Shown here: positions 3,650 through 27,639 of the stretch, piece after piece | How positions within the stretch are numbered: the stretch's first letter is position 1 | How the letters are laid out: every line of letters begins with the position of its first letter | Assembly (NCBI GenBank): GCA_010093605.1 | Contig: MU004197.1 | Coordinates: forward strand, 1 to 64,000 | From: Lophium mytilinum | Taxonomy: Eukaryota > Ascomycota > Dothideomycetes > Mytilinidiales > Mytilinidiaceae | Length of the DNA stretch: 64,000 nt | Direction of reading: 5' to 3' | Notes under the pieces: generated by a model | Told to the model about the DNA's origin: nothing | Database searches by the model: none | Seen by the model: the letters and a program-made list of their open reading frames with translations, nothing else | Made by a program: the position numbers and the translations under genes

Positions 3650-4053
3650 GGTAGAAGGTAATAATTCTTCTATTAAGACGGGTTCTACTTAAGTTTATTA
3701 GAACCTAACCGTAAATACTAGGAGATTGCAAAAGATATACTAATTATAAGTTGTGCAATAGTTTCCTCTAAAGGCTCCTAAGGTGCAATTAGTTGTTAAA
3801 AGGGCGTGGGCGCAGGGCGGGTGGGATAAGGGGCCCTAATATTTATACTAGAAAGACCTCTAGGGTTTTTAAAGATAATTAGAAATAGATCTAGAATAGA
3901 AGTAGAAGTAGGCTTATTAGCCTCTCCTACTACAGCTATTTAGTCTACAGCCCTCTTCTTTTTATCTCTCTTGCGTTGGTTTAAATCCACTATTAAACGT
4001 AATTTAGCTGCTTTTCGCTCTTCTTTATTCTAGTACTTTCGGGGGCGTCCCAT
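3650..4053 (-). pseudogene. Decayed ORF starting with an AT-hook-like basic segment
   Basis: On the minus strand an ATG at 4053 opens a frame beginning MGRPRKY and continuing with a Lys/Arg-rich stretch (NKEERKAAKLRL, then NQRKRDKKKR). It stays partly readable down to about 3650. The GRPRKY start resembles an AT-hook or the basic N-terminus of some fungal DNA-binding and transposon proteins. The same place in copy 2 (near 7496) is more degraded. The unit is repeated and RIP-mutated, so this is probably the relic of a repeat-borne gene. I do not assign a family. Confidence 0.4.
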
Positions 4054-5265
4054 GCTAACTACTAGGTGTAGTAGTAAGGGGGATAATAGTTTAGAATATA
4101 GAGCTAAGGAGCGGAAAGCGGTTAGAGAGTATAATTAGTTAAAAATAAGGATTTATTAACATTCTTATTGTAGGGCTTACCCTGCCTAACCCGTTTTAAC
4201 ACCCCTTACGGATACGGCCACTTAGTTAAGGTCGCTAGGGAAGGGCCCTAGCAGGAAGGCTTCCTGCGGTAGCCCTATTAATTACTTTATCTATAAACGT
4301 TATATAAACTGTATCCTGCCCTTTACTTTATATATTTTATTTAATGCGGCTGAAATTTCTATTACATAAGAATACTATCTAGTAGTAACCCGTGCTAAGG
4401 CGAGGCTATTATAACGCAAAACCCTTTCTATTATATCTATTACCCTCTATAGGCACCTACTACTAGGACTTCGCCTTTTCTATAATGCTTTAATTTTAAT
4501 TACGTATACTGTATATAGTATTATAGCTCCGTTATAGTATCTTAATATCTAGGAGTTATTATATGCAGCAGTAGGAAGGCTGCTTAATTATAGGGCTATA
4601 CTCTGCGCTGCTAGCCGCCCTCTTTCCTTACCCTCTACACCCACCTAGAGCTATAACTATAGCCTATAAAATATTTCTAAATTGCTAGAATGCTATTACA
4701 TTATATAATAAGTAATTTTTCTTATAAATATCTTTAACCTTGTATTATAGTGGTTCTATGCAGCGCTAGTTAAGGTCTTTATTAAGTGCAAGGCTAGCAT
4801 TACGCTAAACTCTTTAAGTAACTTCTATTATTTAGAATCTTACCTCTATATATAACTGCCACTACTACTATAGCCTGCATATTAATTCTAAGTTAATAGA
4901 TCGCTATTACATTACGTATTATATATAATTCTTTGTATATTTCTTCTATACTACATTATAGTAGTTGCATGCAGTAGTAGTTGCACTAATTCTTAAGCGC
5001 GAGGCTATTCTTACGCTAAACCCTTTAAGTAATTTCCATTCTATGCCTGCGCACTCTGCGGCCTCTCTACACCCACCTTAAGCCACCACCACGGCTTGTA
5101 AATTAAATTAAAGTTAATAGAACGCTATTGTATTACATTCTAAGTATTATTCTTTACATGCATACTCTATTTTACGTCGTGGTAGTTAAATGCGGTGGTG
5201 CGAGGTTATACTGCACGCAATTCTTAAAGGTTAATTTTCTCTATATTAAACTCGCTTCTCCCTAT

Positions 5266-5280
5266 CTAACCCTAACCCTC
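5266..5280. repeat. Interstitial telomere-like motif at the repeat seam
   Basis: CTAACCCTAACCCTC lies just before the junction between the two 3.44-kb copies. It is two and a half telomere units in the same orientation as the chromosome end. The matching place at the end of copy 2 (8709-8723) reads CTAACTCTAACCCTC, one transition away. Confidence 0.75.
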
Positions 5281-8200: not shown

Positions 8201-8737
8201 ATATAGCGCTAGTTAAGGTCTTTATTAAGTATAAGGCTAGTATTACACTAAACTCTTTAAGTAACTTCTACTATTTAGAATCTTACCTCTATATATAACT
8301 ACTACTACTACTATAGCCTATATATTAATTCTAAGTTAATAGATTACTATTATATTATATATTATATATAATTCTTTATATATTTCTTCTATGCTATATT
8401 ATAGTAGTTATATATAGTAGTAGTTATACTAATTCTTAAGTGCAAGGCTATTCTTATACTAAACCCTTTAAGTAATTTCTATCCTATATCTATATACCCT
8501 ATAGCCTTTCTATATCTACCTTAAGCTACTACTATAGCTTATAAATTAAATTAAAGTTAATAGAACGCTATTATATTATATTCTAAGTATTATTCTTTAT
8601 ATATATACTCTATTTTATATTATAGTAGTTAAATGCAGTAGTATAAGATTATACTACACGCAATTCTTAAAGGTTAATTTTCTCTATATTAAACTTACTT
8701 CTCTCTATCTAACTCTAACCCTCTAGCCTCTATAATT

Positions 8738-11700
8738 AAGTCTTAGCTAAATAGTATATTAAATATATATAATAATTTTAATTAATATAGCTAATATAGA
8801 TAGATAATACTTCTATATCTATCTACTCTAGCTAGTACTATACTATTCTTCTATCTATACCTATATTAGCCTCTACTAGTTATAAATACCTATATAATAA
8901 GATAAATAAGTAAGAGATTAGAGCTATAGAAAAAGTTAAAAAGAATATAAAAGTTATATAAGAGATAAGAGTATAGAACTATAAAAGATAGTAAGATTAA
9001 ATAGTATAAGAGTCTATATATCTAGCTAATCTACTTTATAATTAAACTATTCTATAGCCCGCCTTACTAAAGAAACTAGACTAGAACTATACTACTCTAA
9101 GGCAGAGCCTTATTATAACCTTATACTATTTTACTAGACTAGAATATAGATAGCTTAATATTTCTATATATAGGTAGTATAGAGTTATCTAAACTATAGC
9201 TATTATTAGAACTAAAAGTATAGCTATATAGCTAAATATTCTAACTAGGTATATAGATTCTATAGGGGGGGAATTTACTACTAGTAGACTGCCCTTCTAT
9301 TTTTCTATCTAGGGACCTCTCTACTATAGAGGAGTACCCTATAATATAGTATATAACTACTTATAGCGTAGTAACTAATAGAGGGCTAGAATTATAGAAA
9401 GAAGGCCTAAATAGTAGTAAAGAGGGTGTTTTAGACTAAGAGAGAAAAGAATATAATAGCTTAAAGTTGCATAATTTAGTTAGTAAAGGTAGAGGCGTTT
9501 ATTATTAATAATATAGAAGAGGGATATATACTATAGCTAAAGGAGATAGCTAGCAGGTTATTCGCGTTTAAGTAGATTATCTAACTAGGGATAAAGTTAG
9601 TAATAAGGGAATAGCTACGCGTTATAATATTAATACCTCTATTAGGGCCTTTAACTTAGCTAGCTATCTATCTAATAATATAGAATATAAAGTCTATAAT
9701 CTCTTAACTAACTACTATTCTAATAGCGTAGAAGATGCTATCTAGAAATAATAGTAGAAGGTAGTAGCGCGCATATAGTAATTAGTAGAAGTTAATATAA
9801 GTATATAAGTATAAGCTCTAGTTTAAGGTAATATAATAGAAGAGGTAATTATATAGATAGAAGAATTTAATTATATAGAATAATAGGGCTTTATTAAGGG
9901 GGGGATAGAGAAGAGGTATATAACTAGCTAAAGATACTAAGTTAATATATATAGACTATATCCGGCTAGCTCTATTATATTCTATTATAATAAATGCGCA
10001 ACTTACTCCCTTTTTATTCCCTTCTTTCTATACTACTTAATTATAATCTGCTTTACTTCTCTTTATAGTTATTATTCTCGCACTCTATCTTAAGAAATAG
10101 AATATTTTTTTACTATACGCCCTCTATCTATTATTTAGTAAGGCTTAATATTACCTACTTAAATATAGAAAAAGATAATATAGAACTATTTCTTTCTACT
10201 CTAAATAGAAACTTACTATATAACTTAAATATACTATACTATATACTCTATCTATAGTATATATTAATATATATATAGCTAATATATATAACTATAAATA
10301 GTAAAGAAGTAAAACTATGCTACCTTAAAACTAATTAATATAGTAATATATCTAGCTTTCTTAACTCTAATACCTACTAACTAATAATAAATATATAGAA
10401 CTTAATAAGTAAAAGAAAATATACTACTAGAATATTTTAAGACGGCAATACTATATTATCTTAGCCGTCTAGCCGCACCTTATCTCTTACTAGAAAGAGA
10501 AAATATAGTATAGAGAATAAGAATAGGTATATACCTATCTTCTAATCTAGTAATACTAACTTTTATATATAAATAGACTTTAAATATAAGATTAGCTTAT
10601 ATATATATTATAGCTACTCTACTAAATAGTATATACTAATAAATACCTATTAGGGTGCCGCCGTAGTCTAAAATAAGATAGCGGCTAGAATAGAAGCCTA
10701 TAGAGCTATTAACTAAATAACTAGGTCTAATATCTTTATATTAAGTAGTCTACTATTCTTCTCTTCTACTAGCCGCTTTTTAGGTATAGGTAGAGGTATA
10801 CCCGTTTATAACTATATTAGCTCCCTTAGTATAAAATAATATAGTAAAATAATTTAGATATAGAATAGTATAGATAGGTATACTAAAGTACTAACTATAA
10901 AGGTAAAATATATAGTAGTAGAAGAATAAATAAGATACTAGATACTTAGAAGTATAGTATTAGGTACTAATATAATTAGAGAATATAGTAATAACCTTAT
11001 AGCCTAGACTAAAAGTATTAAGCTAGATATATTTTAGTAAGTACTAATATAAATATAGATAAATATCTATAAAGACTAACTATTCTATACTTAAGCTAAT
11101 ATCCCTACTACTCTAGACCCTTTTTACGCGCGGAAGGTATATTACTTTCTTTCTACTTCTATAACTTTATATAATAGCTAATTATAATATATAACCTAGA
11201 TTTATAATACTTTTAGTTATTTCTATAACGCTATAATAAAGGTTACTTATAATATTATATAAGAATACTATAGTTTTAGTTCTATAACTCTAGATATTAC
11301 TAGTACCGCGTTAATACTAATAAAGAATTAGAACTATCTCTTTAGGGTAGATAAAGACTAAGTTAAGATTAGTTACTAATCTAGTATTAGATAGTATTCT
11401 AATAGATTATAGAGGCTACTAGTAATCTTTATAGCTAAGGCTATCTAGATAGTAGTTATAGACCTACTCTTTATAGAATAGTCTATAAACGCCTTAGAAA
11501 TATAAAGATACTTAAAAGAGTTTTTTAACCCCCTTTTAGGTAACACTATTATATATATATATACTTGCCTCTACTATACTATTAGTAAATATATCTTAGG
11601 CTAGAAGCGCATAAACCTAATTTATAGAGTTACTACTACTAGTATTAACTATCTTAAATTACTATATAGTCTACTATCTAACACGCAATATATATATTAT

Positions 11701-13261
11701 ATACTATTCTCTAGCCTAGATATCTAGCGCATGTGTTACTAGCTCTAATAGTCTACTAGAATATTAAAATTATTAAGATTAGTAATAGTTATATAATTCT
11801 TAAAAATATATATAGGTATTACTATCTATATAATGCGTAAAGTCTATAATATATATAAAGTTACTATAGACTATAAAGCTCTAGTAGAGGTAGTAAAAAG
11901 AAATAACTAGATATACTAGTATAACTTTAAATTTCCTACTATATATAATAATTATATATTTAGTATATAAGGCCCTATCTATATTATTATCTATCTATCT
12001 ATAACCTAGGCGGATTAGGCAGTTTTAAAAGGTTAGATAGAGGAGGTAGATAGCTATATTTATAAGAACTATAAAGTAGTTATTAACTATAATAATTACC
12101 TATAATACTAGATTATCTATAATTAAGAATTATCCGCGTAGCCTGCGCGTAAATTTTATATAAGAAGTAGATAAACTTTTATAAAGTAGTATAAAGCCTA
12201 TAGAGTAGTAAAATATATAGTTTTCTAGAAGGTTATATAAGTAACTAGTATTCTCTATATATTTTTTAATTTAGAAATTTCTAATACTATATATACTATA
12301 GAAAATAGAAAGTATATATAGTAAAATAGATATACTATATAGCTTTACTATAAGTAGCCTTATATATAGCCTTATATAAGGCTTATATATATAGCCTTAT
12401 TTATAGCCTTATTTATAGCTTTATATATAGCTAAGTATAGGCTATTAGAAATAGTAAAAATATATAATAAAATAAAAAGGCTATATAGCCTTACTATAAA
12501 GCGCTAGAGTAGTATTTTAAGCTCTCTAGGCTAATTAAAAGACTAGATAAAATAGAGGATATATATATACTAAGAAGGGAGTATACTTATACTAATTAGA
12601 GGGGGTACTAGTACTAGTCTCTATAAAAAACCCTTAACTTTAATAAAGCTTTAGCCTTATTTAAAGTTTTAACCTTTAAAGAAGCCTTAACCTTATTTAA
12701 AGTTTTAACCTTTAAAGAAGTCTTAGCCTTATTTAAAGTTTTAACCTTTAAAGAAGCTATATATAGTAGTTTAAATATATTAAGTAAAAATAGTTAGCTT
12801 ATATTTTTATATAAATAGTTTAATATTACTTAAATAGGCTAGTATAATAGTAGTAGTAAATAGCTTTAGTAAATATAATATTTTAAGCTAGTCTCTATTA
12901 AGTAAATAGGCTAATACTAGTATAGCTAGTAGATAACTCTAAAAGTATTCTATTATAATAGTAATAATATTATTTTTACTTTAATAATAAGTACTTTAAA
13001 AATAATAAGCTAAATTAGTAGTAACTTTTAGGCTATATAATAAAAGTACTACTAATACTAACTACTTCTAGTAAGTAGCTTTATACTAGTACTATATAAG
13101 AGACTTTAAATATATAGAAACTATTTATAGTATATTATTATTAAGGCTAAACTCTTATTTTTAAAGAAGCTATATAATATTACTACTATAAAGAGCTATT
13201 AAATAATAAGCTTATTAAAACTCTTAATAATTTAAAATATAGTAATAATATATATTATAAG
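8738..13261. other. RIP-degraded AT-rich block without intact genes
   Basis: Same TA-rich composition as the tandem repeat but not a further full copy of it. Islands of normal composition survive (near 9270-9330, 9540-9640, 10640-10800, 11110-11150). Scattered stretches of protein-like frame can be seen, for example on the plus strand at about 9530-9720 and 11850-12150, but I cannot assign them. A small inverted repeat with arms AGACGGC and GCCGTCT lies near 10440-10471. The right end passes gradually into the DUF3638 pseudogene. Confidence 0.65.
12651..12758. repeat. Minisatellite, three 36-bp units
   Basis: Three adjacent 36-bp units begin TTAGCCTTATTTAAAGTTTT and end AACCTTTAAAGAAG plus two bases. 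They start at 12651, 12687 and 12723 and differ at only a few positions, all C/T or G/A. A looser array of AGCCTTATATAT-like motifs lies just upstream at about 12350-12435. Confidence 0.85.
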
Positions 13262-15373
13262 TACTAGAAGTAGATAGTAATAGCTAAAGATATACTAGCA
13301 TCTTTCTATAATATTTATAGTATAAATCTTTAAAATACTATAGTTTATACTACTAAGATATTCTCTTACTTATAATTTATAAAAGTTATAATAGACTATT
13401 ATTTAGCTAATATAGTCTTTTCTGCCTAGATGCGGGAGTCCCCCTATAAGCTTTTAGCATGTAGTTAGAATATCGCTAAAACTAGGATAAACTCTACGAT
13501 AGGGTTTAGTGGAACTAACGACTCTAAATATACTCTACCGTCGACAATTAAGTAGGTAGAGCTGGACGCCCAGTTGCATACTAACGCAACTGTGCTGAAC
13601 GATCTGCTAAGTGCTAAGAACTCTTATCAAGACATCCCTCATGACCAGGATCAGAATATCACCGCCGATGTTCTGCTAACAATGGTGATCGGTCTGACCC
13701 CACCCGTACGAGTCATCCTCGACGTGGGAGCGCAAGTGCTAGACCTTCAGAATCATGAAATTGCACAGTTGTGGCTGGACAAGACTACGAATGACGATGC
13801 CAAGGCCGTCATTTTCGTAACGAAGCAAGATTTAATAGCAGTTCTGGATCGTGCTGGCACCTTGGAGGCGTTCGCGGTCTCCCCGTGGCAGCGCCAGATG
13901 GATCAGTGCTTCGTCTATCTCGACTAAGCTCATATACGGGGTACGGATTTGAGGCTTCCAATCGACTACCGAGCGGCGGTGACTCTTAGCCCTCGTTTGA
14001 CTAAAGATCGTTTTGTGCAAGCGTGTATGCGGATGAGAGATCTTAGTAAAGGCCAGTCAGTGGTTGCTTGTGCTCCTAAAGACATCCAGAAGCAAATCAG
14101 AATCTCCTGCAACAAGGCCGTGGACGAAAAGATCACCATGCTCGATGCTATTGAGTGGTGTATCCGAAATACTTGGACTCAGATTCAAACAGAAGTGCCA
14201 GTCTGGGCCCAGCAGGATGAGCGTTACGAGCATCAACAACAGCAACTCAATACGGCGCTTGCAAGTAATCCCGATGCCTTGAGCGTTTCGGTGGTAGAGA
14301 GCCTGAAAGAAATAGAGTCTCAAACCTTAGACATGCGATATGGAATCACTTCTCCGAGTTTGCACCAGGCGTGGAGATTCGATCTCCCGAAAGACAACGT
14401 ACAGGAGCCCGTTCAAGCTTCAGGCAATCCTTTAGCCTCAACATCGAAGAGAGTCAAGATGTCCGTAAATACGGAAGCAATTATTTCAAGGTGCCAAGAT
14501 TTCAACATCAGCCCTTACGAAGGCCCTGCCCTACACGAGGAGCAAGAACGCGAGTTGTGTCCGGAAAACGAACGAGAGCAACAGGTGGAGCGGCCACGTC
14601 CGATGCAGGCCCTCTCGCATGTCACCCACGCCGCGATCAAGACATTCGCTCGGACCGGTCAGTGGGGCAACCTCAAGAACGAAGCCGTACTTCCTGCCTT
14701 CTGCTCGCTGAAAACCACAAGCGCTGGTAAACTTCTCCGACCGAACGAGTGGCCTGAGGATCTCTTGGTATCCAAGTCCTTCGCACAATCCGTGAAAGCA
14801 CCAAAGGGAGAGACGACAGACGCATACCTAAAACCAGTAAATTGGATACTTAGCCGACAAACGGACGACGGCACACCACTCGGACGATGGGAACTTGTGA
14901 TAATCAGCCCTGCGGAAGCCAACGAGCTGCTCCCGACAATCATGATGCACAAAATGGTCGCACTTCACCTCTACTCGCCACGCACTCGGCAGTCAATGCG
15001 GTCACTCGATGACCTATAGTTTTGTGTCATCCCGCGACTTGAAACCAGAGGTGTACCCAGCTTGCTGATTACGCAGCTGAACCTGTTCGCCGGGCAGCTC
15101 TACCAGAACCACGATGAAGCGAACAAGACACTGTGCGAGTTCTTGGGTCTTTGGCATGTGCATCTGCTCGCACAGAGTGACGGTTTTATGAAGAAGGATG
15201 ACAGGCATTATGCTGGTCTTCACGACAGAAGCTGTCCCTTCACTGTCTCGCCTATGAACTTCGTGAAAGAGTGGCTAGGTATTCGGAGGAGAGGCCAGAG
15301 CTTCGAGAGGACGCACATGGGTGCACTGGTTGTAGTGGGAAGGGCGCTGACCGGGAAGGACTTTGAGTCTTAG
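13262..15373 (+). pseudogene. Pseudogene: C-terminal part of a giant DUF3638/DUF3645-type protein
   Basis: One plus-strand frame carries family hallmarks: GFSGTND (about 13493-13513), VRVILDVGAQ (near 13710), QCFVYLD then AHIRGTDLRLP (13903-13954), and LTKDRFVQACMRMR (about 13996-14037). The family consists of fungal proteins of roughly 3,000 residues often annotated as ubiquitinyl hydrolase. Here only the C-terminal end survives. In-frame stops interrupt it at 13466, 13553, 13925 (where the family has Glu in the DEAH-like VYLDEAH motif) and 15017. After the last one the frame continues to 15373 with family-like sequence (LLITQLNLFAGQLY). Upstream of about 13430 the same frame can be followed into RIP-mutated DNA to about 13262 (AKDIL near 13280, VIIDYYLANIVF at about 13385-13420). 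The N-terminal two thirds or more is missing or unreadable. Confidence 0.85.
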
Positions 15374-15929: not shown

Positions 15930-16863
15930 TCACCCCCGCCCTACAAGCACCTCCCGCAAAACCTCCCCCCACGCCCCCTCCCCCTCCCTCACCAGCCCCG
16001 CCTCCGCCGCCTTAACCGCCCACATCGCCCACTCAATCCGCCCATCCACCACCCGCACATCCCGCCCCTTAACCCTAACATCCACCTCCCTCGTACTCTG
16101 CAACGATATCACAAGATCTCTTGCAATCTCCGCCAGCGACCGCCCCCATGGCCTCCACTCCCGCACCGCCACTGCCTCCAGCGCAACCAACCGGTCCAGA
16201 CACGAAAACACGTTCTCGTGATAAGGCGTACGTGGCGCCTCCCCGAAGACGCGGGTCGCTACCTCCGTCGTGTAGTGCCGATGGCACGATTCGTTGGAAG
16301 GCCGGGAGACGGTGGTAGGTCGGTTGTTTACGGGGGCGGTCACCTGTAGCGCGCCGTTGGGGTGGGTTCGGCGAATGATTAGGGTGCGAGCCTTGTTTGT
16401 GGGAGAAGCGGGGAGGTCTGGCATCGAGCATTGGATGCTCTGCATGAAGCTCGCGGGTTCCGCGTCGTTGATGTGGAGCGTGGCGATGTCGGGCATCGGG
16501 GCCGAGACGTCGCTCATGAAGCTGATGGGGTCGGGGTCGTCGGAGGCGGGGATGAAGCGGCGCGGCGTTTTGGCTGTTTGGGGCGGGTTTTGCGTAGAGG
16601 TGCTGTGAGTGGAGGGGGCTGCGTTGGCGTCAGGCTTGGTTGCTGTTTCGGCCTGGGGGGTAGGCTGTAAGAGATGGTCAGCAAGTGACGAGTATGTGGG
16701 ATTTGGGTAGACCTACGGCTGCGTTTGCATCGTTGTCGTTAGGCACGTCTGTATCCCTAGGCAGATTCTGGAAAGGATTGGTGGGAGTAGGATGGGCTTG
16801 ATCTCCTCTGGCGGGCTGACGGGTTCCCTTCTTTGTCTGCTTCGTCTTCTTCGCACGTGCCAT
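15930..16863 (-). CDS. WAxWA-family protein, copy 1 (unknown function)
   Basis: Two exons: 16717-16863 (49 codons, ATG at 16863) and 15930-16664, separated by a 52-bp phase-0 intron (donor GTAGGT, acceptor TTACAG); predicted 293 aa. Exon 1 is Lys/Arg-rich (MARAKKTKQTKKG), possibly a nuclear or nucleic-acid-binding tail. Exon 2 is disordered, then has APMPDIATL, a His/Cys spot (ESCHRHYTT), and a C-terminal helical part with VDGRIEWAMWAVKAAEAGL. This end matches loci at 21.8, 24.4 and 25.2 kb, which defines a local family. I recognise no known domain. The C-terminal exon is very GC-rich, so antisense frames are open there, but the splice structure and paralogy support this strand. Confidence 0.75.
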
Positions 16864-17677
16864 TTTGGGGTGTGACTTGAGCGTAAACCAAGACAACAAG
16901 TGCTACAAAAAAATAATTGACTATTTGCGTAGTGTGGCTGTATTGGGGTAGAGATGTTCAAAACTGCGGACCAGCGACAGGGCGACGGGTGTTTTATAGA
17001 TCAAACAATCACTACGGGAAGTGAATGACAAATGCCTTTCTTCACGCTGAGATAACATACCACTCAGTGAACGTATTTTGTTACGTGTATTATACGTGCT
17101 TCTCGCTTGTCTTGTATATCGTACGAAGAGTTCAAAAGACTGATCTGGTGGGACTACGGCATGTTAAGTATTGCACGACGGCTACTCAAGTATCCCTCGG
17201 GAACTTTGGGAATCTGGTCTCATTTGTTTGTTTATATTGGCCATTGGGCAGAAATTGGTAAAAATGGCATCTGGTATAGTCAGCCAAGCTCTCTGTAGTC
17301 GGGGGTAGATAGAGTTTGCAGTCTAGTCAGCTAATAGAAGTCAAAAGATAAGATGTTCAAGGCTCACTTTCTAAGTATCATCAATCGCAACACAAAAACA
17401 TCTCGGTTGACTTTTACTGAGAGTCTTTATAAAGGTCCCACATCATCCTGGGATTCGATATTGACATCCAAGAAAATAAAGCACGTCCCAAATTAGCGGA
17501 CTCTGAAGGACACAAAGCGTGAGAAAAGATGCAAGATCGCATGGGTTATGTTTTCGAACAAGATATTGCGATTGGATATGTTGATATTTCCATTAGCGAC
17601 AGAAACCACCATGGACTGTGTCGGCGCCAAAGTTGTTATGACTCTTATGAGCCGTAGTAGAATGGGCCCATGTTTAT
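16864..17677. other. Intergenic, no gene seen
   Basis: Upstream of WAxWA copy 1 and downstream of the MFS gene, which end and start facing away on the minus strand. Short open frames here (60-78 codons) lack paralogues, splice logic or codon bias. No repeat or RNA gene recognised. Confidence 0.5.
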
Positions 17678-19446
17678 CTAAACGCGCTCGATATGCTCGG
17701 CGTTCCTACCTGCAGGCCCAGAAACACTCTTCCTCTTGACCCGACTCTTCTCTCTCGTCTGATCAATACTCTGCGCAAACTTCGACTTAGCCCTAATCCC
17801 CGGACCCTTTCGATAGAAGACGTAGATCGGGATTGTAACCACCACAGAGATACACGCAAGAATAGTACTCGCATATTCAAGCGGTCTACCCGGTATGTAC
17901 GTGTACATGGGCGTGCTGTACAGCGCAGCAATACCAGCCAGAAAATCTCTCGCCAGATCATTACCTCCCGTAGCACTGGCAGCATACGGTCCGTAAGCGG
18001 CAGTCATGTAGTCGATACTACTCTGGTAGATCGCGTAGTTTGCGATACCGACCATGCATGAGAAGATCATGGTGGCAATCCAGGGGATGCCGTAGGAAGG
18101 CCCGAGCGAGGTCCATGCGAAGCCGAAAAGGCCGATTGCTTCAAAAGGGGCGAGGAATAGGAGCCACCACAGGCGCACTTCGGGTTTGAGGCGGTCGGGG
18201 TCGCGGCGGCGGATCTTGCGGAAGTGGTGGATGGAGGGCAGGTAAGATAAGTAGGCTAGAATATAACCAACAAGAAGACTATAGGAGTAGTCTTAATTAG
18301 CGAATGCAGGTTGAGGGTAGAATATTATGGGTGGAGTGGCTTACGGGATGAAGGCCAGGCTTACGCCGACTGTGCCAAAGCCCCATTGCTTGTATACTGG
18401 CGTGAAAGACTGGAGGAACGTGAAAATAAGCGCGTCGCTGAAGCCACTGAGTAATGATAGCCAGAGCACAATCGGCTCGGTGAAGAACATATCTATATAC
18501 ATCAATACATTGCTCAGAAAGTTGACCTTGCGAGAGAGGCTTACAGAAAGGGCGATAGAAGATAGTCCAGAACTCCTTCGGCGATAGCTTCCTTCCGCGG
18601 ATTTCATTAGGCCCATAGATGTTAGGATCTTCTCCGGTCTTGCGCCTCCGCTTGGCTTCGCGATCAAGCAGGATCGTCGCGCGGGTTTCGGGATTCAGTG
18701 CGAGATGAACAAGTTGCACTCCTCCCCCGACTAGAAGCTGTGTCCAAAAGATCCATGGGAGGGATTTGTATTCTTGAACGAAGCCGCCAATGATAGCACC
18801 GACGACGGAGCCACCAACCGAAGAGAGTACGAGGAAGGCGACGGCGTATTCTTGATCATCGGGCTCCCACATGTCCGCAAGGACTCCAAGGGTCACGGAT
18901 CCACCGGCTGTAGAGAGGCCGCCGAGGAAGCGACAAATGACATACGTGCCGTAGTGCTTCGATAGTGCGCAGGCTAATCATACGTGACATCAGTAACCGA
19001 GACAGAGAAAAGCGCTTGAATGGGGGGGAGTTCTTACGGATCTGCCAGATGTTGACGAGAAACAAGCTGAGCTGCTGGATTGGCCAGCGCCCATATTCTT
19101 CGCTCCACGGAGCCCAAAGCTCACATCCGAACGCATAGGCTACCAGGAAGGTCATTTGCGGGATTCGTGCGACCTGCTTGGTGACGCCAAAGTTCTCAGA
19201 AATTCCATCGACAGCATTGGCATACATGCTGGCATTGAGGTTCATGGAGATCTGGATTAGGAAGACGACGCAAAGAATCTGCCACTTTCGCCACGTTGGG
19301 AAGCTGTATCCAAGCTTGTCCCAGGCATCTGAGTCCTGGAGCTCGACCCGGTCATCCTTGACGATGCGGTCTGCTTCTTTCTCCTGAGCAGCCTCGCCTT
19401 CAACGTACTTGTGCTCGCTATCAGTTTCGGGGACGTTGGTAGCCAT
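17678..19446 (-). CDS. MFS transporter, DHA1-like multidrug/polyamine subgroup
   Basis: Four exons: 19038-19446, 18545-18973, 18345-18492 and 17678-18278, with introns of 64, 52 and 66 bp (donors GTAAGA, GTAAGC, GTAAGC). All phases agree and give 528 aa, normal for a 12-TM transporter. The N-terminus is acidic and cytosolic. The loop after TM2 carries the motif-A-like WAPWSEEYGRWP, followed after splicing by NIWQIPCALSKHYGT and GGLSTAGGSVTLGVLADMWEP, typical of fungal DHA1 drug/H+ antiporters. The middle loop is basic (EAKRRRKTGEDPN). Later helices include SLLSGFSDALIFTFLQSF and ASTILACISVVVTIPIYVF. It should export small organic compounds at the plasma membrane or vacuole; the substrate cannot be told. 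It is divergently transcribed from RAD14 with about 800 bp between them. Confidence 0.93.
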
Positions 19447-20254
19447 CTTGGATTGGAATCAACGAGACTTCGAGAAGATTATGGAGAGAAATAGATGTAG
19501 ATCAGAGATATATTGCCTAGACTGACGGATGTACAGTGCGTACACCCTATGCACAGACGATAAACGACGAGAAAGCGAAGAAGGATTTGGGAACGGGCTA
19601 CAAATAAGCATTGCGTGGTACCGCATCCCACCATCATGAATATGGAGACGACGTCAATGGCGTGGCGGTGGTTTGTCCCGCCGCCTTACAGACCTCGTGC
19701 TTTGTCTCGGCCGCGATCAGACAGCGCCGATCGCTCGCGGTTAGCCATTCGGCGGGCAGCTTCTAAGACTTGCCAACAAAGCCAAGACGACGCGGGGCTG
19801 ATTTGGGGCTGACTTCGAATGCGGAGAGAGGCGTATTCCCCTCACGAGGTGCTGATGCTAAGCGAATCCTCTTGGCCGTGCGTCATGGTTATCGTTACGT
19901 CTTGTACGAGCACATAACGCCATCTTGATGGGCCTTTAGGCAGATATGGGGGGATTTGACGACGATTCTGCGTTGAATCTGCTTTTGGGTGAATGTTGTA
20001 AGGGTGAGGGAGGTCTGGGTAAGGTTCCGTCCGACGTCGTGGCAGACCCACTTGGCGCTGCGATCCCCCAGCAATTTTCAGTGGGGCCTGATCTTTTGCA
20101 CGTGAGACCGCGATGACGACGTCCCCTCCATCCAAACTTCAACACCAAACCATCAACGCGTAACGCCTCCATCTAACCTCGACATACCTCGTCGTCTAAT
20201 AGTCTCGACTTAATCCTTCGCTCCTTACCTCCCTGCTCAACGCGCGCATCTGCC
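19447..20254. promoter_or_regulatory. Divergent promoter region between the MFS gene and RAD14
   Basis: 808 bp without a supportable gene between two divergent start codons, so both promoters must lie here. Several ACGTC/GACGT cores are present (for example around 19650, 19900, 20030 and 20120), but I do not claim specific sites. Confidence 0.5.
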
Positions 20255-21452
20255 ATGGCCGACCGGCCTTCAACGCCACCTCGAGGTGGCGCTCGCCCGC
20301 AGCCACCCATGACACCTGAACAAGTGCGGCGGATGGTACGCAATCTACTCTATAGCCCTATATGCTCTTATGCGGAGACATGTATCTAACAGCTCCCAGG
20401 AAGAAGCGCGTCTGAAAGCCAAAGCCCTCCGCGCCGCCGCCGATGCCGCGAAACCTCCGCCAGCTCCCAGCAGAACCACCCCCGCAAGCCTCAAGCGCGC
20501 CCACTCCTCCATATCCTCCTCTACCGCTCCTCCGACCCTTCGCGATGCCTCCAAGATTACACAACCTACCGATCCCACTCTCCAGCCGGCGAAGAAATTT
20601 GCCCGCGATAACTACGTCGAATATGACTTTAGCAAGATGACGGACACCAAAGGCGGGTTTCTCTCAAAGGAGGATGATCCACATAATCGTGCGATGAGAT
20701 CAGGGAGGCGAGAAGAGGAGAAAGAGGAGAAACCGGCGCATATGACCCTCGCGGAGTGGGAGCGACACCAAACAATCAAGAAGCTGCGGGCGGCGCGACA
20801 AGGGCCGTTTGAGCCCGGCATCAGCGAGCTGGATCGCAACAACGGCGCCAAAAACGGGAAGGGCCAATGCAGAGAATGCGGGAGTCTGGAGATAGATTGG
20901 AAGTGGGAGGAAATTTTCGGCGTCAGCGTTTGCGCGCGGTGCAAAGAGACGATACCGGAGAAGTACAGCCTGCTCACGAAGACGGAGGCGAGGGAGGATT
21001 ATCTGTTGACGGATCCCGAGCTCAAAGACGAAGATCTCCTCCCGCATCTTTCCCGGCCGAATCCGCATAAATCGTCATTTCACGACATGCAGCTCTTCCT
21101 GCGGTTTCAGGTCGAGGACTATGCTTTTAGTCCAAGGAAGTGGGGCTCGCCTGAGAATCTCGATGCGGAGTTTGAGAAACGCCAGACCGTATCTAAGTCC
21201 CGCAAGGAGAAGAAGTTCAACTCAAAGCTGGCCGATCTGAAGAAGCGCACAAGGGTGGAGGCTTACAAGCGGAGTAGACTTGCGGCAGTGGCAGGCGAGG
21301 GTGGGCGCGAAGCACAGTTCGGTGACAAAGTAACGAGGTATGGCGAGCGGCATGAGCACGAATGGGGTAGAGCGGTGCTTGATCCGGAGAGTGGAATGAG
21401 TAAGAAAACGTGTGTGGAATGCGGGATGGAGATTGAAGAGTTGGAATTTTGA
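20255..21452 (+). CDS. RAD14: DNA repair protein Rad14/XPA
   Basis: Two exons, 20255-20335 and 20400-21452, with a 64-bp phase-0 intron (GTACGC, CTAAC branch, CCAG); predicted 377 aa. Exon 1 supplies MADRPSTPPRGG and TPEQVRRM, which continues in exon 2 as EEARLKAKALR. A zinc finger follows with the XPA spacing C-X2-C-X17-C-X2-C (CRECG ... VCARC). After it come the conserved TKTEAREDYLLTDPEL and the DNA-binding core with HDMQLFLRFQVEDYAF and a basic helix (KKRTRVEAYKR). XPA/Rad14 verifies damage and scaffolds nucleotide excision repair in the nucleus. Length and architecture are normal for a fungal orthologue. The C-terminal end carries a second Cys pair (KKTCVECG). This is the clearest core gene in the accessory region. 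Confidence 0.95.
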
Positions 21453-21798
21453 TTAATATAAGAAGTCCCATTCCCGGTACTTGATTCGCACTCTGCAGCT
21501 TGCTACCTTGTTTCCTGAAACCAGTGTACACGTGTAACCACCTCTAACAGCGTCGTCAGAGCAGCAATCGCAATTTCAATCCCGTGCAATTCAGCTTCAA
21601 GATAATCCGACCCTCGGTAGCTATCCGGTTCTCAACGTTGAATCAGCCCTGTTCGAACAAGAAGAAGTACACGTCAATGTCGTAAGTTCCCATTCCGTGA
21701 GAAAATCAATCCCCCACCCGTTCATCCTTTACCAATACCACATCCAAGCTACCACACTCCCCAGCTGTCAAAACCCCCCGCACACATACTCCCAAAGC
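21453..21798. other. Intergenic between convergent genes
   Basis: 346 bp between the stop of RAD14 and the stop of WAxWA copy 2, so a shared 3' region. Nothing else recognised. Confidence 0.5.
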
Positions 21799-22614
21799 TC
21801 AAAAAACCCCACCTTCCCTCCTTCTCCCCTCCACCTGCCTCACCACCCCCCCACACTCCACGGACCACGCATGAAATAGCCCCTCATGCACCGCCCTCAC
21901 CGCCCACTTCGCCCACGCAATCCGCCCATCTACCTCCGCGGGCTCCATCCCCTGCCGCTCGATCTCGATCGTCCGGTCGTTTTCTAGCGCGATGACCATG
22001 TCGATCGCGATGTCTACTAAGAAGCGTTTGACGGGTTCCTGAGCCTCACGGGCGAGGACGCGGTCGAGGTTTGAGAAGATCTCTTTGGCGAGGGCGGGGT
22101 TGGAGGGGGCGTGGCGGAAGATGGCGGCGGTGGTGGAGGGGGGGCAGTGGTGCGGGCAAGGGGGCGGAGGTATGATGGTGGAGACAGGGGGTCTTGGAGG
22201 CGGGTTCATACCAGCGAGGCCTCTGGGTGTGGACTCGGCTCCAGGAACACGCTCTTCGTGGCCAGGTGACTGGGTTGACTGCAAGTCGAGTTTCGAGATA
22301 TCGGGCATTGGGACCGATATGTCTTCCATGTAGGGGTGTGGTGGGGCGCGCTGTGCGGGTGGAACGATATTGTTTTCATTGTCCGAAGCTTCATCCTAGG
22401 GTATATGTGAGCAGGTTGGCCTTGATGCGATTTTGATTGTCAGAATGCTTACAAGGGCAGACCGAGACTGCTGGCGTGTTGTAGGGACGCGGTAGCCCGG
22501 GAATGGAGCAGCGTTGCTACTGCTCGGTACACGTGGAGGTGCTTTCCGTGCCTGTTTCGGCTTGTTCTTGGCTGTCTTTCTGGCTGCGCTGCGCTGAGGG
22601 GTCTTTGCAGGCAT
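21799..22614 (-). CDS. WAxWA-family protein, copy 2 (unknown function)
   Basis: Two exons: 22453-22614 (54 codons, ATG at 22614) and 21799-22395, with a 57-bp phase-0 intron (GTAAGC, CTCAC, CCCTAG); predicted 252 aa. Exon structure matches copy 1: a basic first exon (MPAKTPQRSAARKTAKNK), an intron, a disordered part, then EDISVPMPDISKL, parallel to copy 1's SDVSAPMPDIATL. The Cys/His spot is PPPCPHHCPPSTT. The C-terminal helix is VDGRIAWAKWAVRAVHEGLFH. Function unknown. It is convergent with RAD14. Confidence 0.78.
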
Positions 22615-23461
22615 GTTGTGATGATACAAAGAGGGGCTGGGGTGTAGGAAGGGGTTCTTAGGTGAAGAAGTTGTGTGTGGTAGGAATATGACCGGATTTT
22701 TTGTACGTTGTTTGTTGGAGAGTATGAGGGAGAAACAGGCACTGCAGGTGAATAGCTTGCTGTCTCGAAAGCCGAGTCGTCGAGTTCTGGATTTCCTAGT
22801 TCCCTTCACCTTTTCATAGATAGGGAAACAACAGCAACTTCTACGAATGCCGGAGCAACCTAATAGAAAGGGGTAGCTACGCGTAAAATAGCTTAGCGTA
22901 GATTAGAAGAACCCCATAGATTAACTGCCCGAAAATAGGTATCAATGCCTCCAAACTCTGCATATGCTCGATCCTATACCTAGCTCTCGTTTAAGCATCT
23001 ACCTAGAAATCTAAGAGTCACCATCCTTGTGTACGTGAGAAAAAGAAGAGTAACGGAACGCTCGGTAGATACTCAAGACGGAAGCTGATGCCGCATATAC
23101 GTACTTATACGTAGAAAGTAATATAGATCTACACGAATTGGAGCAGTAGATGCGGAGGTGTACGTTGAGCCTATATCTCTATATGAGGATGTACCGGTCA
23201 AAACTTCCTCCAAGTCGTAGCCCGCAGTGACCACTTGATTTTTTACAAGCCTGATGTCTAGAACACTTCACGGCAAGCAGTTGATTGAGCGGGCAAGTTA
23301 TACATCAAGCGGTCTACGCCCGTAATGATCAATTGCTTCGAACTATACCCTAAGAAGAGCAAATCAAATCCGTAGCTTGATTGCTCGCTCGTCGGAGTAT
23401 CCAGATCGCGCTGTTTGTGAAACGAGTTGGACGCGCGTGTCAGAAGCTCACTTCTTCGAGT
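22615..23461. other. Intergenic, partly AT-rich
   Basis: Upstream of WAxWA copy 2 and left of the MITE. The base composition drifts toward AT with TA-rich stretches (about 22860-23160), suggesting mild RIP or old repeat DNA. Two short frames cross it, neither supported. Confidence 0.45.
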
Positions 23462-23469
23462 ATCTATAA

Positions 23470-24120
23470 GGGGAGGGATAAGCGCACGCCCCCTAATTCC
23501 TCCACGCACGCCCCTTGATTCCTCCACGCACACCCCCCTATCGTCTAATCTTCTAATTGGCTCGGAGGGCTCGGATCACTGCTCCGGCGTACTAAGGCCG
23601 TACGTGAGGCCGTACTTATGGCAAGGCTGTGCAGCATACCCGTTTTACCATGCATACTTCTAGTTTCCTGTGTATAGAGGCTATGCCTATGCGCCTAGGA
23701 GCATGCTAAAACAGTTAAAACCTCACCTTATTACGGCACCTCCGCATTAAACCTAGCACCCGTACATCGCCGCCGCGCCTACCTGGCTATCCTAATTAAT
23801 AACCCCCTCTATTTCTATTTAATACGATGCTATCTGACGTATAAGCTCCTTAACGGTAAGCCGCGCCGGCACTACCTGAGGCTGAGGCTGAGGCTCAGCG
23901 TATTATGGAGGTGTAGGATGAGGATGTGGTATTGTTGGTGGCCACAGCGTGCTTAGAGAAAGCAGTTGGAATTAGTAAGCGAGTTGAGCGTGAGAATAGA
24001 GCTCCGGGCGAAGTTCCGGCCCGTTCTGGCCAATTAGAAGATCAGACGATAGGGGGGTGTACGTGGAGGAATCAGGGGGCGTGCGTGGAGGAATTAGGGG
24101 GCGTGCGCTTATCCCTCCCC
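23470..24120. mobile_element. 651-bp MITE with 92-bp inverted repeats and 8-bp target duplication
   Basis: The ends are inverted copies: left arm 23470-23561, right arm 24029-24120, differing at about three positions over 92 bp. The outermost bases are GGGGAGGGATAAGCGCAC. The element is flanked by perfect 8-bp direct repeats ATCTATAA (23462-23469 and 24121-24128), which fits hAT-type insertion. Inside each arm a motif like CACGC(A)CCCC(T)NATTCCTC is repeated. The 467-bp interior contains no intact gene; it has a GCTGAG triplication near 23885-23895 and a short open frame. The arms are unusually long for a hAT MITE, so the superfamily call rests mainly on the 8-bp duplication. Confidence 0.88.
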
Positions 24121-24128
24121 ATCTATAA

Positions 24129-24433
24129 TGGAGACAGTTGCCGTCCTATTCCACTTAAATTCGCAAGAAATGGCACCACTAAGAAGACCTTAAAAGCGTG
24201 GAGGGATGGTCGGTTGTAGAGCGGGAGAATATAAGTAAATCCTATTTACTATGGATATCATTTTACACTCTCATCTATTGCTTCATAGGTCACGACTCAG
24301 GATTTTGCATGTCTACACGTCTCAATACCACGCAATATGTTTTTGAGCGAGATGGTTCAAAATTGAATGAGGCTATTGACGTCCTGCAACAGACCTTCTC
24401 TAATGTGACACTCCTGTGGTGCCATCTACTTGT
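24129..24433. other. Intergenic between the MITE and WAxWA copy 4
   Basis: About 305 bp with nothing recognisable beyond the 8-bp target duplication at its left edge. Confidence 0.4.
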
Positions 24434-24873
24434 TTATGTTCTAACGACAACCCTCTCCATAAATAGTTCCAACTGTTCTGCGATGGATCCACACGCTTCA
24501 GTTGGTTCATGAAATAACCTCAGCTGAGCCGCTGACGCAAACCATTTAGCACAGTCAACGCGCCACTGAACAACTATCGCATCTTCTCCCCTGCTATGGA
24601 TAGCCATGGGTTTGTCCCATTCGAGATGATCGCTCAACGCTTCCGCGATAAGACGCACAGATCGGGGGTCGCGCTGTGTTTCGCCGCTGTTTCCACCTCT
24701 TTCTCCCATAAGCGCCTAAGTCGCTCCATCACATCCATCCAATTCTCCTTGGCTTCGTCTAGTCGTGGACGGTCAGGCATCATCTGGATAAGAAATCTTG
24801 TCTTCTCAGTGGTGCAGTGGTTGGAGCATGGGTTCAGGCTCATTGAGCTGCGGATAGGTTGCGTGGAAGACAT
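24434..24873 (-). pseudogene. WAxWA-family copy 4, frameshifted
   Basis: The first part starts at ATG 24873 (MSSTQPIRSS) with the Cys/His spot NPCSNHCTTEKTR. The second part, in another frame, carries GLIAEAL-like RLIAEALSDHLEWDKP, then VQWRVDCAKWFASAAQLRLFHEP, and ends at 24434. Alignment with copy 3 places a one-base deletion in the stretch coding EVETAxK...RDPRS (about 24670-24700). It is 330 bp from copy 3 on the same strand, so these two are a tandem pair. The second WAxWA tryptophan position is kept, but the first Trp-Ala has become Cys-Ala. It is broken unless the deletion is a sequence error. Confidence 0.75.
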
Positions 24874-25202
24874 CTTGAAGACAGCGTTTCCTGCGTTAGA
24901 TCGATTAGGACAGCGGGATGGCTCAAAGCGAGAGTTTGAGGAAGACTGAGCTTAAACAAGTACTCTGGAAACACTCAAGATAGTACGCTTTTATATTCAG
25001 CTAGGATGAAGATTGCACAGTGACCGATTTTTCACCTGATTGCTGTTTGTAGCTAACAGATTGATGCTTTATCGTGGTATTGTGATCAAATTGTTCTATT
25101 TTCTTATAGCAACTAACCTTATGACATAAGGTTTTACAGCACAGGTTTGCCCATACGTAAGATTAAACGTCTCTTGCATTCCTTCCGTGCCCATCTACCC
25201 TC
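24874..25202. other. Spacer between tandem WAxWA copies
   Basis: 329 bp, AT-rich, the 5' flank of copy 4 and 3' flank of copy 3. The 5' flanks of the two copies look related (both have CATCTTGAAGACAG.. / CATATTGGGTACGG.. followed by TTTCCTGCGTTAGATCGA or TTTCTGCGTTAGATCGA), supporting recent tandem duplication. Confidence 0.5.
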
Positions 25203-25643
25203 TCAAGAATGACCTTCGACTCGCTCCATCGCCACTCTAACCTGACGATGCATGGATCCACACGTATGGTTTGGCTCATGGAACAACTTGATCTTGGCTG
25301 CCGACGCCACCCACTTAGCCCAGTCGACTCGTCGCTGAACCACCATCACGTCTTCTCCCCTGCTTTGCACAGCCATCATCGCGTCCCAATCTAGGTAGTC
25401 GCCCAACGCTTCCGCAATGAGGCCTGGCGAGCGGGGATCTCGTTTGTACTTCTCGGCCGTCTCCACCTCAGTCTTGTACAGTCGCTCGACTCGGTCTACC
25501 ACGTCCTTCAGAACCTCCATGGTCTTGCCGTGGCGAAGATATTCGGGGATCAGCTCGTGGAGGGACTTTGCCTCGTCGTCGGTACAGTGGTTGGGGCATC
25601 GGGTGGGGGTGTTGATGGGAGTGATAGATTGGTTGGAAGGCAT
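25203..25643 (-). CDS. WAxWA-family protein, copy 3 (unknown function)
   Basis: A single open frame of 146 aa from ATG 25643. It lacks the basic first exon of copies 1 and 2. Order: MPSNQSITPINTPT, Cys/His spot RCPNHCTDDEAKSL, a charged helical region (VDRVERLYKTEVETAEKY), RDPRSPGLIAEALGDYL, then VQRRVDWAKWVASAAKIKLFHEP, followed by TCGSMHRQV. The C-terminal block aligns with copies 1, 2 and 4, and the whole length aligns with copy 4. I recognise no domain in it. It is the only intact member of the short subgroup here. Confidence 0.7.
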   Translation of the reverse strand: MPSNQSITPINTPTRCPNHCTDDEAKSLHELIPEYLRHGKTMEVLKDVVDRVERLYKTEVETAEKYKRDPRSPGLIAEALGDYLDWDAMMAVQSRGEDVMVVQRRVDWAKWVASAAKIKLFHEPNHTCGSMHRQVRVAMERVEGHS

Positions 25644-26538
25644 ATTGGGTACGGTTTTCTGCGTTAGATCGAATTAGAGACTGAAACTTCAAAGGCGTTG
25701 ATTTGAGGGAAAAGGAGATCAGGCAATTATCGCGAGCTGACTGGGATAGTACCTTATGTGTTTCGCGAGAGGGATGATTGTGCAGTGGCTGAAAATGAAA
25801 GCAGCTTGTTTGTAAGTTGAAAGATTGACGCTCCAGCGTAACTATAGTGAACAATCGTTGTGTCGGCGTCTGAAAACCACTACTGTAACCTTGAGAGAAA
25901 CGAAAGTTGAGGCCGAGTTTACCAAACAGCGGTGAAGAAGGTAGGTCGTTCTATACGTGGCAGAAATCTCTTTAATTCAGTCGGGGACTCACAATGGCGT
26001 TGGGATGTTTTCAAGAGGTCAGAGCACCTCAGACGGTTGAAAGTGGTTCCCAGAATGGTGGGCACTATACTCTGAGGCACTGTCACAAACCTGGGCACAT
26101 TATCTTTCTATCTCTTCAAGACTTATAGTGATATGGTAAGCACCACAGGAAGCTACCAAGCAGGTAGGCCGAGTGAATGCTCGAGAGACCTCTTTGATCC
26201 TACTTTCCGGCGTTTGAGTCGTCTCGGAACATTGAATTCACCGGAGGACTCTCATACGGTGTTAAGCGAGTTAGCCCCCGGACATCTACCGAGACGCTTA
26301 AACTCGCTTACGCTTCTGCCTGCTGCATGTGAAAGTATGACTAACCATGTTTGGAATTCTCCACGTGCGACTATTTATTGACAACCTTTCCCGCTCGACC
26401 TCGCGACTCGCACCCACACCTCTCCACGCCCTATCGACTTGGATTCAGCCAACGAGTAAGTATAAAGTTCCATCTTCGTCATTTGACCATATCCCAGTCA
26501 GCGTACCCTTCCAAAGCTATAACATTCACTCGTCAGCG
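25644..26538. other. Intergenic, divergent promoter region
   Basis: 895 bp between WAxWA copy 3 (minus) and the repeat protein (plus). The frame downstream is open from about 26347, but the bases upstream of 26539 read like 5' UTR with no motif, so I start the next gene at the ATG at 26539. Confidence 0.5.
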
Positions 26539-27639
26539 ATGGCGCGTGTCAAAAAACACCGCATGAGCGCCAAGAAGCGCGACGCGAAGAGGCGTCATTA
26601 CGCGACGAACAAGGCCCGAAAGAAGGCTCACCCGCCTCCTACTGACCCGACAGCCGGCCCTAACCCCAATGGCTTCACACAACCAACGACTAGGTACGAC
26701 AGATGCCGCCCAACACTCTTCGTAAACCCGATACTACCTAACCCCCACAGTACCCTCGCCAATGCCTTCCTACCGGGATTGCAGATGCCTGCCAACGACT
26801 ACCTGTCTGGACTACAGGTGCCCACCAACGACCCTTTTTCTGGAATACAGATGCCCACCAACGACTTCTCGTCTAGACTACAGATGCCCACCAACGACTT
26901 CTTGTCTGGACTACAGATGCCCACCAACGACTTCTTGTCTGGACTCCATATGCCCGCCAATGACTTTCTGTCTGGAATGCAACCGGCCGACAATGCCTTC
27001 CTGGATGGACTGCAGGCGCCCGCTTCCGCAGTCACCGTCCAATCTGCCCTAGACGCTCTGTACGACGCTCAGAACGCGATCATGGCCGCTCAATTTGCCC
27101 TGATTCATCCCCAGAGTGGAGTCCCAAACCCACCATATCCGATGGCGCCTCCACCCACGATCCCCTCCGAGCCCGAATTCCCCGCCGAGCCTGAAGTCTC
27201 TCGCGCCGATTCCGGGATGCACGCGGCATTCACCCCCCTTGCTGCTCCGTCTGTCGTCTCCGAATGGCTCTCCGATCTCCCCGGGGATACGTCTGTTACT
27301 GTCCAGGAGAACCAAGCTCAGTGCGGCAAGTGTCAGCTCGAGGGACGCAAATGGGAGACGCATGCGGAGCAAGCTTGCCCGTACCAGACCAAGGAGACGG
27401 TCAAGAAGAAGCGTAAGGTGAAGAATGAGCAACAGAGGAAGAAACAGTTGGAACGGTGGGAGAAGCACAAGGAGAAGAGAAGGGAGGAGCAGAAGATGAA
27501 AAGGGCTGGGAAGTTGATATTGGAGGACATGGAGGACCTGGGAATTCATTTTCCGCCTGACTTCCAGCTTTTCGATGAGGAGGAAATGAAGAAGATCTTG
27601 GAGGAGGAGTTTGGGCCCTCTGGAGTGCCGATGGACTGA
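26539..27639 (+). CDS. Lys-rich protein with 11-residue tandem repeats and a CCHC-like site
   Basis: The start at 26539 (MARVKKHRMSAKKRDAKRRH) gives a basic tail like exon 1 of WAxWA copies 1 and 2. A 57-bp intron with GTACGA donor, CTAAC branch and CCACAG acceptor is likely at 26694-26750. Because 57 is a multiple of three, the unspliced frame is also open: 347 aa spliced, 366 aa unspliced. Seven 11-residue repeats of type GLQMPTNDFLS follow (26776-27006), then a Pro-rich region, a possible zinc site C-X2-C-X9-H-X4-C (CGKCQ ... THAEQAC) and a long Lys/Arg/Glu helix that probably forms a coiled coil (KNEQQRKKQLERWEKHKEKR). Function unknown. The N-terminal resemblance may be convergent. Confidence 0.7.
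   Translation: MARVKKHRMSAKKRDAKRRHYATNKARKKAHPPPTDPTAGPNPNGFTQPTTRYDRCRPTLFVNPILPNPHSTLANAFLPGLQMPANDYLSGLQVPTNDPFSGIQMPTNDFSSRLQMPTNDFLSGLQMPTNDFLSGLHMPANDFLSGMQPADNAFLDGLQAPASAVTVQSALDALYDAQNAIMAAQFALIHPQSGVPNPPYPMAPPPTIPSEPEFPAEPEVSRADSGMHAAFTPLAAPSVVSEWLSDLPGDTSVTVQENQAQCGKCQLEGRKWETHAEQACPYQTKETVKKKRKVKNEQQRKKQLERWEKHKEKRREEQKMKRAGKLILEDMEDLGIHFPPDFQLFDEEEMKKILEEEFGPSGVPMD
26776..27006 (+). repeat. In-frame minisatellite, seven 33-bp units
   Basis: Seven 33-bp units encode GLQMPANDYLS-type repeats, with a partial eighth (GLQAPAS) from 27007. The middle units are nearly identical, which points to recent unit expansion by slippage or unequal exchange; the last ones have diverged. Confidence 0.92.

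What the first reader, a model, noticed from the sequence alone, without database searches (positions are those of the whole stretch)
15930..25643. Undescribed local gene family (WAxWA) with four copies in 10 kb
Four minus-strand loci (15930-16863, 21799-22614, 24434-24873, 25203-25643) share a C-terminal helix of the form V(D/Q)xR(I/V)xWAxW(A/V)xxAxxxxL(V/F) and, further upstream, a Cys/His spot (CHRH, CPHHC, CPNHC, CSNHC). Two long copies have a lysine-rich first exon, a phase-0 intron of 52-57 bp and a (V/A)PMPDI(A/S)(T/K)L motif; two short copies lack these. I recognise no known domain. Copies 3 and 4 are a recent tandem pair, one of them broken. This is a lineage-specific, fast-changing family on both sides of RAD14.
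Basis: partly seen in the sequence, partly recalled or inferred. Interest (0 to 1): 0.72.

Follow-up and report, generated by a model that had tools for sequence, protein, structure and literature searches.

The report
Chromosome-end fungal gene family, unknown domain
Near a telomere in what looks like a fungal genome lie four relatives of a small gene family that encodes a helical protein domain matching nothing in the databases searched; seven further clear relatives were found, all near the same end of one contig, so it is a real, old and fast-changing family whose function is still unexplained.

Summary
Of ten pairwise comparisons among the four loci (copy 3 as two pieces), eight beat all 2,000 shuffles; profiles built from the other members recover 11 of 11 family rows at E<=1.1e-10. 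The window starts at a telomere. The shared part is a domain of about 125 residues with five predicted helices (copy 4: mean pLDDT 80; copy 2) and usually a C-x2-H-C spot at its start. No significant match in Pfam, NCBIfam, PDB sequences, PDB folds or viral folds. Three distal genes give three-exon models with two phase-0 introns. Corrections: copies 3 and 4 are sisters but old (dS about 1.9), not recent; the family is not local to RAD14. Best reading: non-secreted, perhaps nuclear, helical interaction proteins; unproven. No other fungal genome was available, so 'lineage-specific' is untested.

The parts
16717..16863 (-). copy 1 (c1) exon 1, 49 aa, K/R-rich (net +7 in first 30 residues)
   Evidence: predicted, no RNA
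16665..16716 (-). copy 1 intron, 52 bp, phase 0, GTAGGT...TTACAG
   Evidence: predicted, other GT-AG choices also open
15930..16664 (-). copy 1 exon 2: PMPDI linker, CHRH spot, helical domain to the stop
22453..22614 (-). copy 2 (c2) exon 1, 54 aa, K/R-rich (13 K/R, 0 D/E)
   Evidence: predicted, no RNA
22396..22452 (-). copy 2 intron, 57 bp, phase 0, GTAAGC...CCCTAG
   Evidence: predicted, other GT-AG choices also open
21799..22395 (-). copy 2 exon 2: PMPDI linker, CPHHC spot, helical domain
24434..24873 (-). copy 3 (c3), split over two frames: N-terminal piece 24873-24634 with CSNHC, C-terminal piece 24709-24434
25203..25643 (-). copy 4 (c4), 146 aa, intact short form; CPNHC at residues 16-20, predicted helices 22-31, 39-65, 73-93, 99-117, 131-143
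20370..21452 (+). neighbour, not a family member: RAD14/XPA gene, main exon
   Evidence: XPA_C E 1e-25; XPA_N below its cut-off (21.3 of 27.1 bits)
23465..24125 (.). neighbour, not a family member: element with inverted-repeat ends, 111-nt arms 90% complementary, between copies 2 and 3

Best explanation
A paralogous family of intracellular proteins that look non-enzymatic. Shown: eleven homologous loci in the first 350 kb of one contig; a shared, mostly helical domain of about 125 residues (usually a C-x2-H-C spot, then five predicted helices, with W-A-x-W in the fourth and a C-G-S turn before the last); fewer non-synonymous than synonymous changes per site; no strongly hydrophobic stretch in the five proteins measured; a K/R-rich N-terminal exon predicted on long forms. 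Inferred: the basic exon is a nuclear-localisation or nucleic-acid-contact tail, the linker (strongly acidic in g339 and g346) is flexible, and the helical bundle binds a protein partner, so that long forms bring a partner to chromatin or RNA, while short forms such as c4, which keep only the module, could compete with or modulate the long ones. The family grew by old duplications followed by fast divergence and some decay.
For: Homology. Distribution. dN (or pN) below dS (pS) in 36 of 36 pairs of nine rows, g337 and g348 not included; e.g. c3b/c4 0.34 vs 1.94, c1/c2 0.62 vs 1.48. Two phase-0 introns of 56-73 bp in models of g339, g346 and g344, which suggests real spliced genes. Models of a short (c4) and a long (c2, exon 2 part) copy have the same order of helices, with one helix broken in two in c2. 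Highest 19-residue hydropathy about 1.03 in the five proteins measured; net charge of the first 50 residues +4, +12, +2, +5 in c1, c2, g339, g346; linker charge -19 and -20 in g339 and g346.
Against: No localisation, expression or interaction data. dS is saturated: undefined in 21 of 36 pairs, so the strength of constraint is not measured. c1 and c2 linkers are not strongly acidic (0 and -5), and exon-1 charge of g339 and g346 is modest (+2 in the first 30 residues). No known fold matched, so the binding-module idea rests on helical architecture alone; a catalytic role is not excluded. Both structure models rest on five rows from the window, two of them pieces of one gene. Exon models are predictions: g344's was picked with a seed peptide from g339-like sequence, and no model was obtained for g338 or g289.
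Confidence: 0.4

Rival explanations
1. Fast-evolving secreted effectors of a plant- or animal-associated fungus, a common reading for small fast-changing genes near fungal telomeres.
For: Copies 1-4 lie 16-26 kb from a telomere beside about 13 kb of AT-rich DNA; broken copies; strong divergence.
Against: No hydrophobic N-terminus: the highest 10-residue hydropathy starting in the first 25 residues is below 0 in five of five proteins measured (no dedicated predictor was run); long forms begin with K/R-rich sequence. The lifestyle of the fungus is unknown.
Confidence: 0.1
2. Remnants of a mobile element or virus-derived gene (a domesticated coat, gag or transposase part) that spread along this contig end.
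For: Relatives of one inverted-repeat element lie in both clusters (C17:23465-24125; 340995-341076; 343667-344218); two family copies are split over frames; g339 has a sub-threshold Pfam Mutator match (E 0.026) and c4 a sub-threshold Transposase_21 match (E 0.094).
Against: Those matches are below cut-off and no two members share one; intron structure is shared by paralogues; no significant viral fold match (best E 0.28); no IMG/VR place matching g339; the element has relatives on many contigs while the family was found on one.
Confidence: 0.12
3. A self/non-self recognition or linked drive family, kept together because linkage to partners matters.
For: Eleven of eleven members lie in the first 350 kb of one contig that makes up 3.7% of the assembly; short domain-only forms beside long forms; divergence and decay.
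Against: No Pfam match of any kind at cut-off; no membrane-type stretch; clustering is also what plain duplication gives; no population data.
Confidence: 0.06
4. Chance: spurious reading frames in G+C-rich DNA that share a short W/A-rich motif.
For: The motif alone is weak: W-A-x-W-x3-A-[A/V] as DNA occurs 34 times in the genome (12 for the reversed control), and only 8 of the 34 are family members.
Against: Homology over the whole domain far above shuffles, leave-one-out detection of 11 of 11, dN below dS in 36 of 36 pairs, matching intron structures, confident c4 model.
Confidence: 0.01

Closest known systems
Phage DUF6378 proteins (viral fold matches)
   Same: Mostly helical small domain; nine of the 50 viral fold matches listed (272 found with E<=10) carry this name.
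   Different: Not significant: E 0.28 or worse, TM-score by query length at most 0.31; no Pfam match at cut-off in the members scanned. A weak lead only; no membership claimed.
Subtelomeric gene families of fungi in general, e.g. the Candida albicans family of PMC9713401 (search listing and start of abstract seen)
   Same: Paralogues near a chromosome end with duplication, divergence and decay.
   Different: Seven of eleven members lie 289-350 kb from this end and none was found at another contig; the domain matches nothing named in the libraries searched.
wtf-type drivers of fission yeast (recalled, no call)
   Same: A fast-changing family concentrated on one chromosome (recalled).
   Different: Those are membrane proteins (recalled); no membrane-type stretch here. 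No membership claimed.

Membership tests
The family itself (WAxWA domain) | Homology over the domain to the other members | tested here: met
   Leave-one-out profile E 1.1e-10 or better for 11 of 11 rows; copy 3 as its C-terminal piece only
The family itself (WAxWA domain) | C-x2-H-C spot at the start of the domain | tested here: inconclusive
   Present in c2, c3 (N-terminal piece), c4, g338, g339, g344, g346 and, in another frame, g289 (CRRHC); altered in c1 (CHRH); not clear in g337; absent in g348
The family itself (WAxWA domain) | Basic first exon joined by phase-0 intron(s) | tested here: inconclusive
   Predicted for c1, c2, g339, g346, g344; not seen upstream of c3 and c4; g338 has an open basic frame upstream but no model (the attempt mis-located its start and was no test); g289 no model; g337 and g348 not tried
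Any Pfam-A or NCBIfam family | Profile match at the curated cut-off | tested here: not met
   No match at cut-off in the window pieces or the distal ORFs; NCBIfam, a prokaryote library, no match at E below 0.067 in 11 members. Spliced full-length proteins and exon 1 alone were not scanned
Any solved fold | Foldseek E<=0.001 against PDB | tested here: not met
   75 matches with E<=10 (50 listed), none <=0.001, best 1.8, c4 model only; sequence searches best E 0.13 and 0.11
Secreted effector | N-terminal signal peptide | tested here: not met
   Hydropathy only, five proteins
Lineage-specific family | Absence from other fungi | not testable with these tools
   No fungal genome other than the window's own is held

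The most novel reading that the evidence does not exclude
A protein domain with a fold not yet in the PDB defines a fungal family confined to one chromosome end, with long nucleus-directed forms and short domain-only forms that modulate each other, acting as a linked recognition or drive system.
Probability: 0.05. Interest if true: 0.75.

Novelty: new member of a known kind. Interest (0 to 1): 0.36.

Why it matters
Fungal genomes hold many unannotated families. Here homology, likely gene structure and a confident model of the domain can be set out from one genome alone, and the members found are confined to one contig end. If the reading is right it adds a small helical domain to the catalogue and offers long and domain-only paralogues in which competitive regulation could be tested. 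As it stands it is a solid family description without a known function.

Tried and rejected
Pfam, NCBIfam, PDB sequences by single protein and by profile, PDB folds and viral folds: nothing significant. IMG/VR with g339: nothing. Papers: no text holding any of six peptide strings of the family; two topical searches gave general papers; an attempt to name the species from assembly size gave no match. All papers were seen only as search listings and starts of abstracts; none was opened.

Members elsewhere: the pattern for W-A-x-W-x3-A-[A/V] gave 34 matches against 12 for the reversed control; 8 are family members. The 26 others still exceed the control, which I did not explain; 20 of them were fetched and scored, best E 0.012 to 0.08 for a 28-residue open frame (L056), none convincing; 6 were not looked at. 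The pattern for W-x2-W-I-x2-A-x3-G gave 9 matches against 3 for the control; three lie on C17 at g292, g337 and g348; 5 of the other 6 were fetched and scored, none convincing. g292 (C17:292819-293658 +) is borderline (E 0.17; 0.25 and 0.015), finds only itself in the genome and is not counted. Outside C17 the protein queries gave only C12:591458 (E 0.02 with c1) and C1:3208744 (E 0.3 with c2), both left out. Single-sequence searches would miss very distant members.

A zinc site joining C-x2-H-C with the late Cys was considered: c1 has lost the second Cys of the first spot and the late Cys, but g338 keeps C-x2-H-C without the late Cys, and g348 has late Cys without C-x2-H-C, so it is not supported. 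An intron that bypasses the frame change of copy 3 is open in principle, but would drop residues that match copy 4; not adopted. The bacterial-type promoter/terminator scan does not apply to a fungus. In the tree test the window label was somewhat clustered (32 of 500 shuffles as low), which is mildly for a shared local history.
Full report
WHAT WAS CLAIMED AND WHETHER IT IS THERE. The four minus-strand loci exist at the stated coordinates. With copy 3 taken as two pieces there are ten pairwise comparisons: eight beat all 2,000 shuffles, one (c1 with the copy 3 N-terminal piece) is at chance, and one compares the two pieces of copy 3 and is uninformative. A leave-one-out test, in which each domain row is scored by a profile made from the others, detects 11 of 11 rows at E 1.1e-10 or better.

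THE FAMILY IS LARGER AND LIES NEAR ONE CONTIG END. The window is C17:1-64000 of a 43.18-Mb, 24-contig assembly. Its introns, gene content and telomere repeats look fungal (inference); the species was not identified. Searching the whole genome with c4 found five more loci, all on C17 (1.6 Mb) and on the minus strand: 289283-289588, 338462-338836, 339769-340137, 344732-345106 and 346396-346755. A profile of nine copies then found two divergent members outside its training set, at 348930-349589 (E 4.7e-11) and 337260-337997 (E 1.3e-8), both plus strand. Genome searches with eight family or candidate proteins gave no match with E below 0.01 outside C17. Two pattern searches, with 25 of 32 non-member places fetched and scored, gave no further convincing member, g292 staying borderline. 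The window begins with telomere repeats, followed by about 13 kb of AT-rich DNA (23-36% GC), so copies 1-4 lie 16-26 kb from a chromosome end.

GENE STRUCTURE. g339 and g346 and g344 (chosen with a seed peptide) give three-exon models with two phase-0 introns of 56-73 bp: a basic first exon beginning MPPYNLR, MPAPYNLR or MPPELRS, a short second exon with a G-F/Y-R core, and a third exon with linker and domain. Their exon-3 proteins are only 34-38% identical, so the shared structure supports real spliced genes. For c1 and c2 the models have one intron each; the c2 first exon has a PGYR stretch that resembles the distal second exon, so it may be a fusion of the two (inference). No basic exon was seen upstream of copies 3 and 4. 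Copy 3 is split over two frames; g289 likewise has its CRRHC part and the rest in different frames, by decay, assembly error or an unrecognised intron.

THE DOMAIN. AlphaFold2, with only five window rows, gives c4 a mean pLDDT of 80, with ten-residue means of 89-95 over residues 41-110: helices 22-31, 39-65, 73-93, 99-117 and 131-143, with a small bridge around the C-G-S turn. The exon-2 part of c2 gives the same order of elements, one helix being broken in two, with lower confidence (mean 71; 75-96 over residues 61-150) and a low-confidence front. No significant match was found among PDB folds (best E 1.8), viral folds (best E 0.28), PDB sequences (best 0.13 and 0.11), Pfam or NCBIfam. Fold comparison of small helical bundles is weakly informative, and no library of predicted cellular proteins was on hand.

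EVOLUTION. In 36 of 36 pairs of nine rows dN (pN) is below dS (pS), but dS is undefined in 21 of them. The copy 3 C-terminal piece and c4 are sisters (100/100) yet have dS about 1.94, so their duplication is old; only the frame change of copy 3 need be young. The tree is otherwise poorly resolved (1 of 8 inner branches starred; g337 and g348 on long branches). It places c3/c4 with g338/g339 at 80/94, and the window copies form one group in 0% of 200 bootstrap trees, though the label is somewhat clustered (32 of 500 shuffles as low). This argues against a purely local expansion around RAD14. The neighbours are RAD14/XPA for the proximal group and a replication factor C subunit for the 337-350 kb group; this may be coincidence. 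Relatives of one inverted-repeat element lie in both groups and could have served as recombination sites (inference).

HOW IT MAY WORK. None of the five proteins measured has a hydrophobic N-terminus or a membrane-type stretch, which disfavours secreted effectors. The long forms begin with basic residues and, in g339 and g346, continue through a strongly acidic linker (-19 and -20) to the helical domain; c1 and c2 have weaker linkers (0 and -5). The most economical reading is a nuclear, non-enzymatic interaction protein, with short forms as domain-only variants. Homology, architecture and some constraint are shown; localisation, partners and function are inferred. Confidence 0.4.

NOVELTY AND INTEREST. 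The domain is unnamed in the libraries searched and no paper in the held library contains six of its peptide strings, but 'undescribed' and 'lineage-specific' remain untested against fungal proteomes. Old, fast-changing paralogous families near fungal chromosome ends are a known kind, so I call it a new member of a known kind.

Noticed in passing
window 23465-24125: Element with inverted-repeat ends (arms of 111 nt, 90% complementary, each with 22-bp sub-repeats) with full and partial relatives on many contigs (40 of 55 candidates scored); pieces also lie near distal family members at C17:340995-341076 and 343667-344218.
   Followed up: partly
window 1-14000: The window begins with CCCTAA telomere repeats and continues with about 13 kb of AT-rich DNA (23-36% GC) before DNA of normal G+C content.
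   Followed up: no
window 26782-26976: A 33-bp tandem repeat of about six copies inside the ORF 26347-27639 (+) encodes an 11-residue repeat of the type MPTNDFLSGLQ; the ORF has a K/R-rich stretch after about residue 60 and no Pfam match at E<=0.01.
   Followed up: partly
L013 6820-7659 (C17:292819-293658): ORF whose C-terminus resembles the family (W-F-E-W-I, later C-R-C), but only at E 0.015-0.25; possibly a very distant member.
   Followed up: partly
L014 1-894 (C17:335000-335893): The 337-350 kb family group lies next to a replication factor C subunit gene, as the window group brackets RAD14.
   Followed up: no
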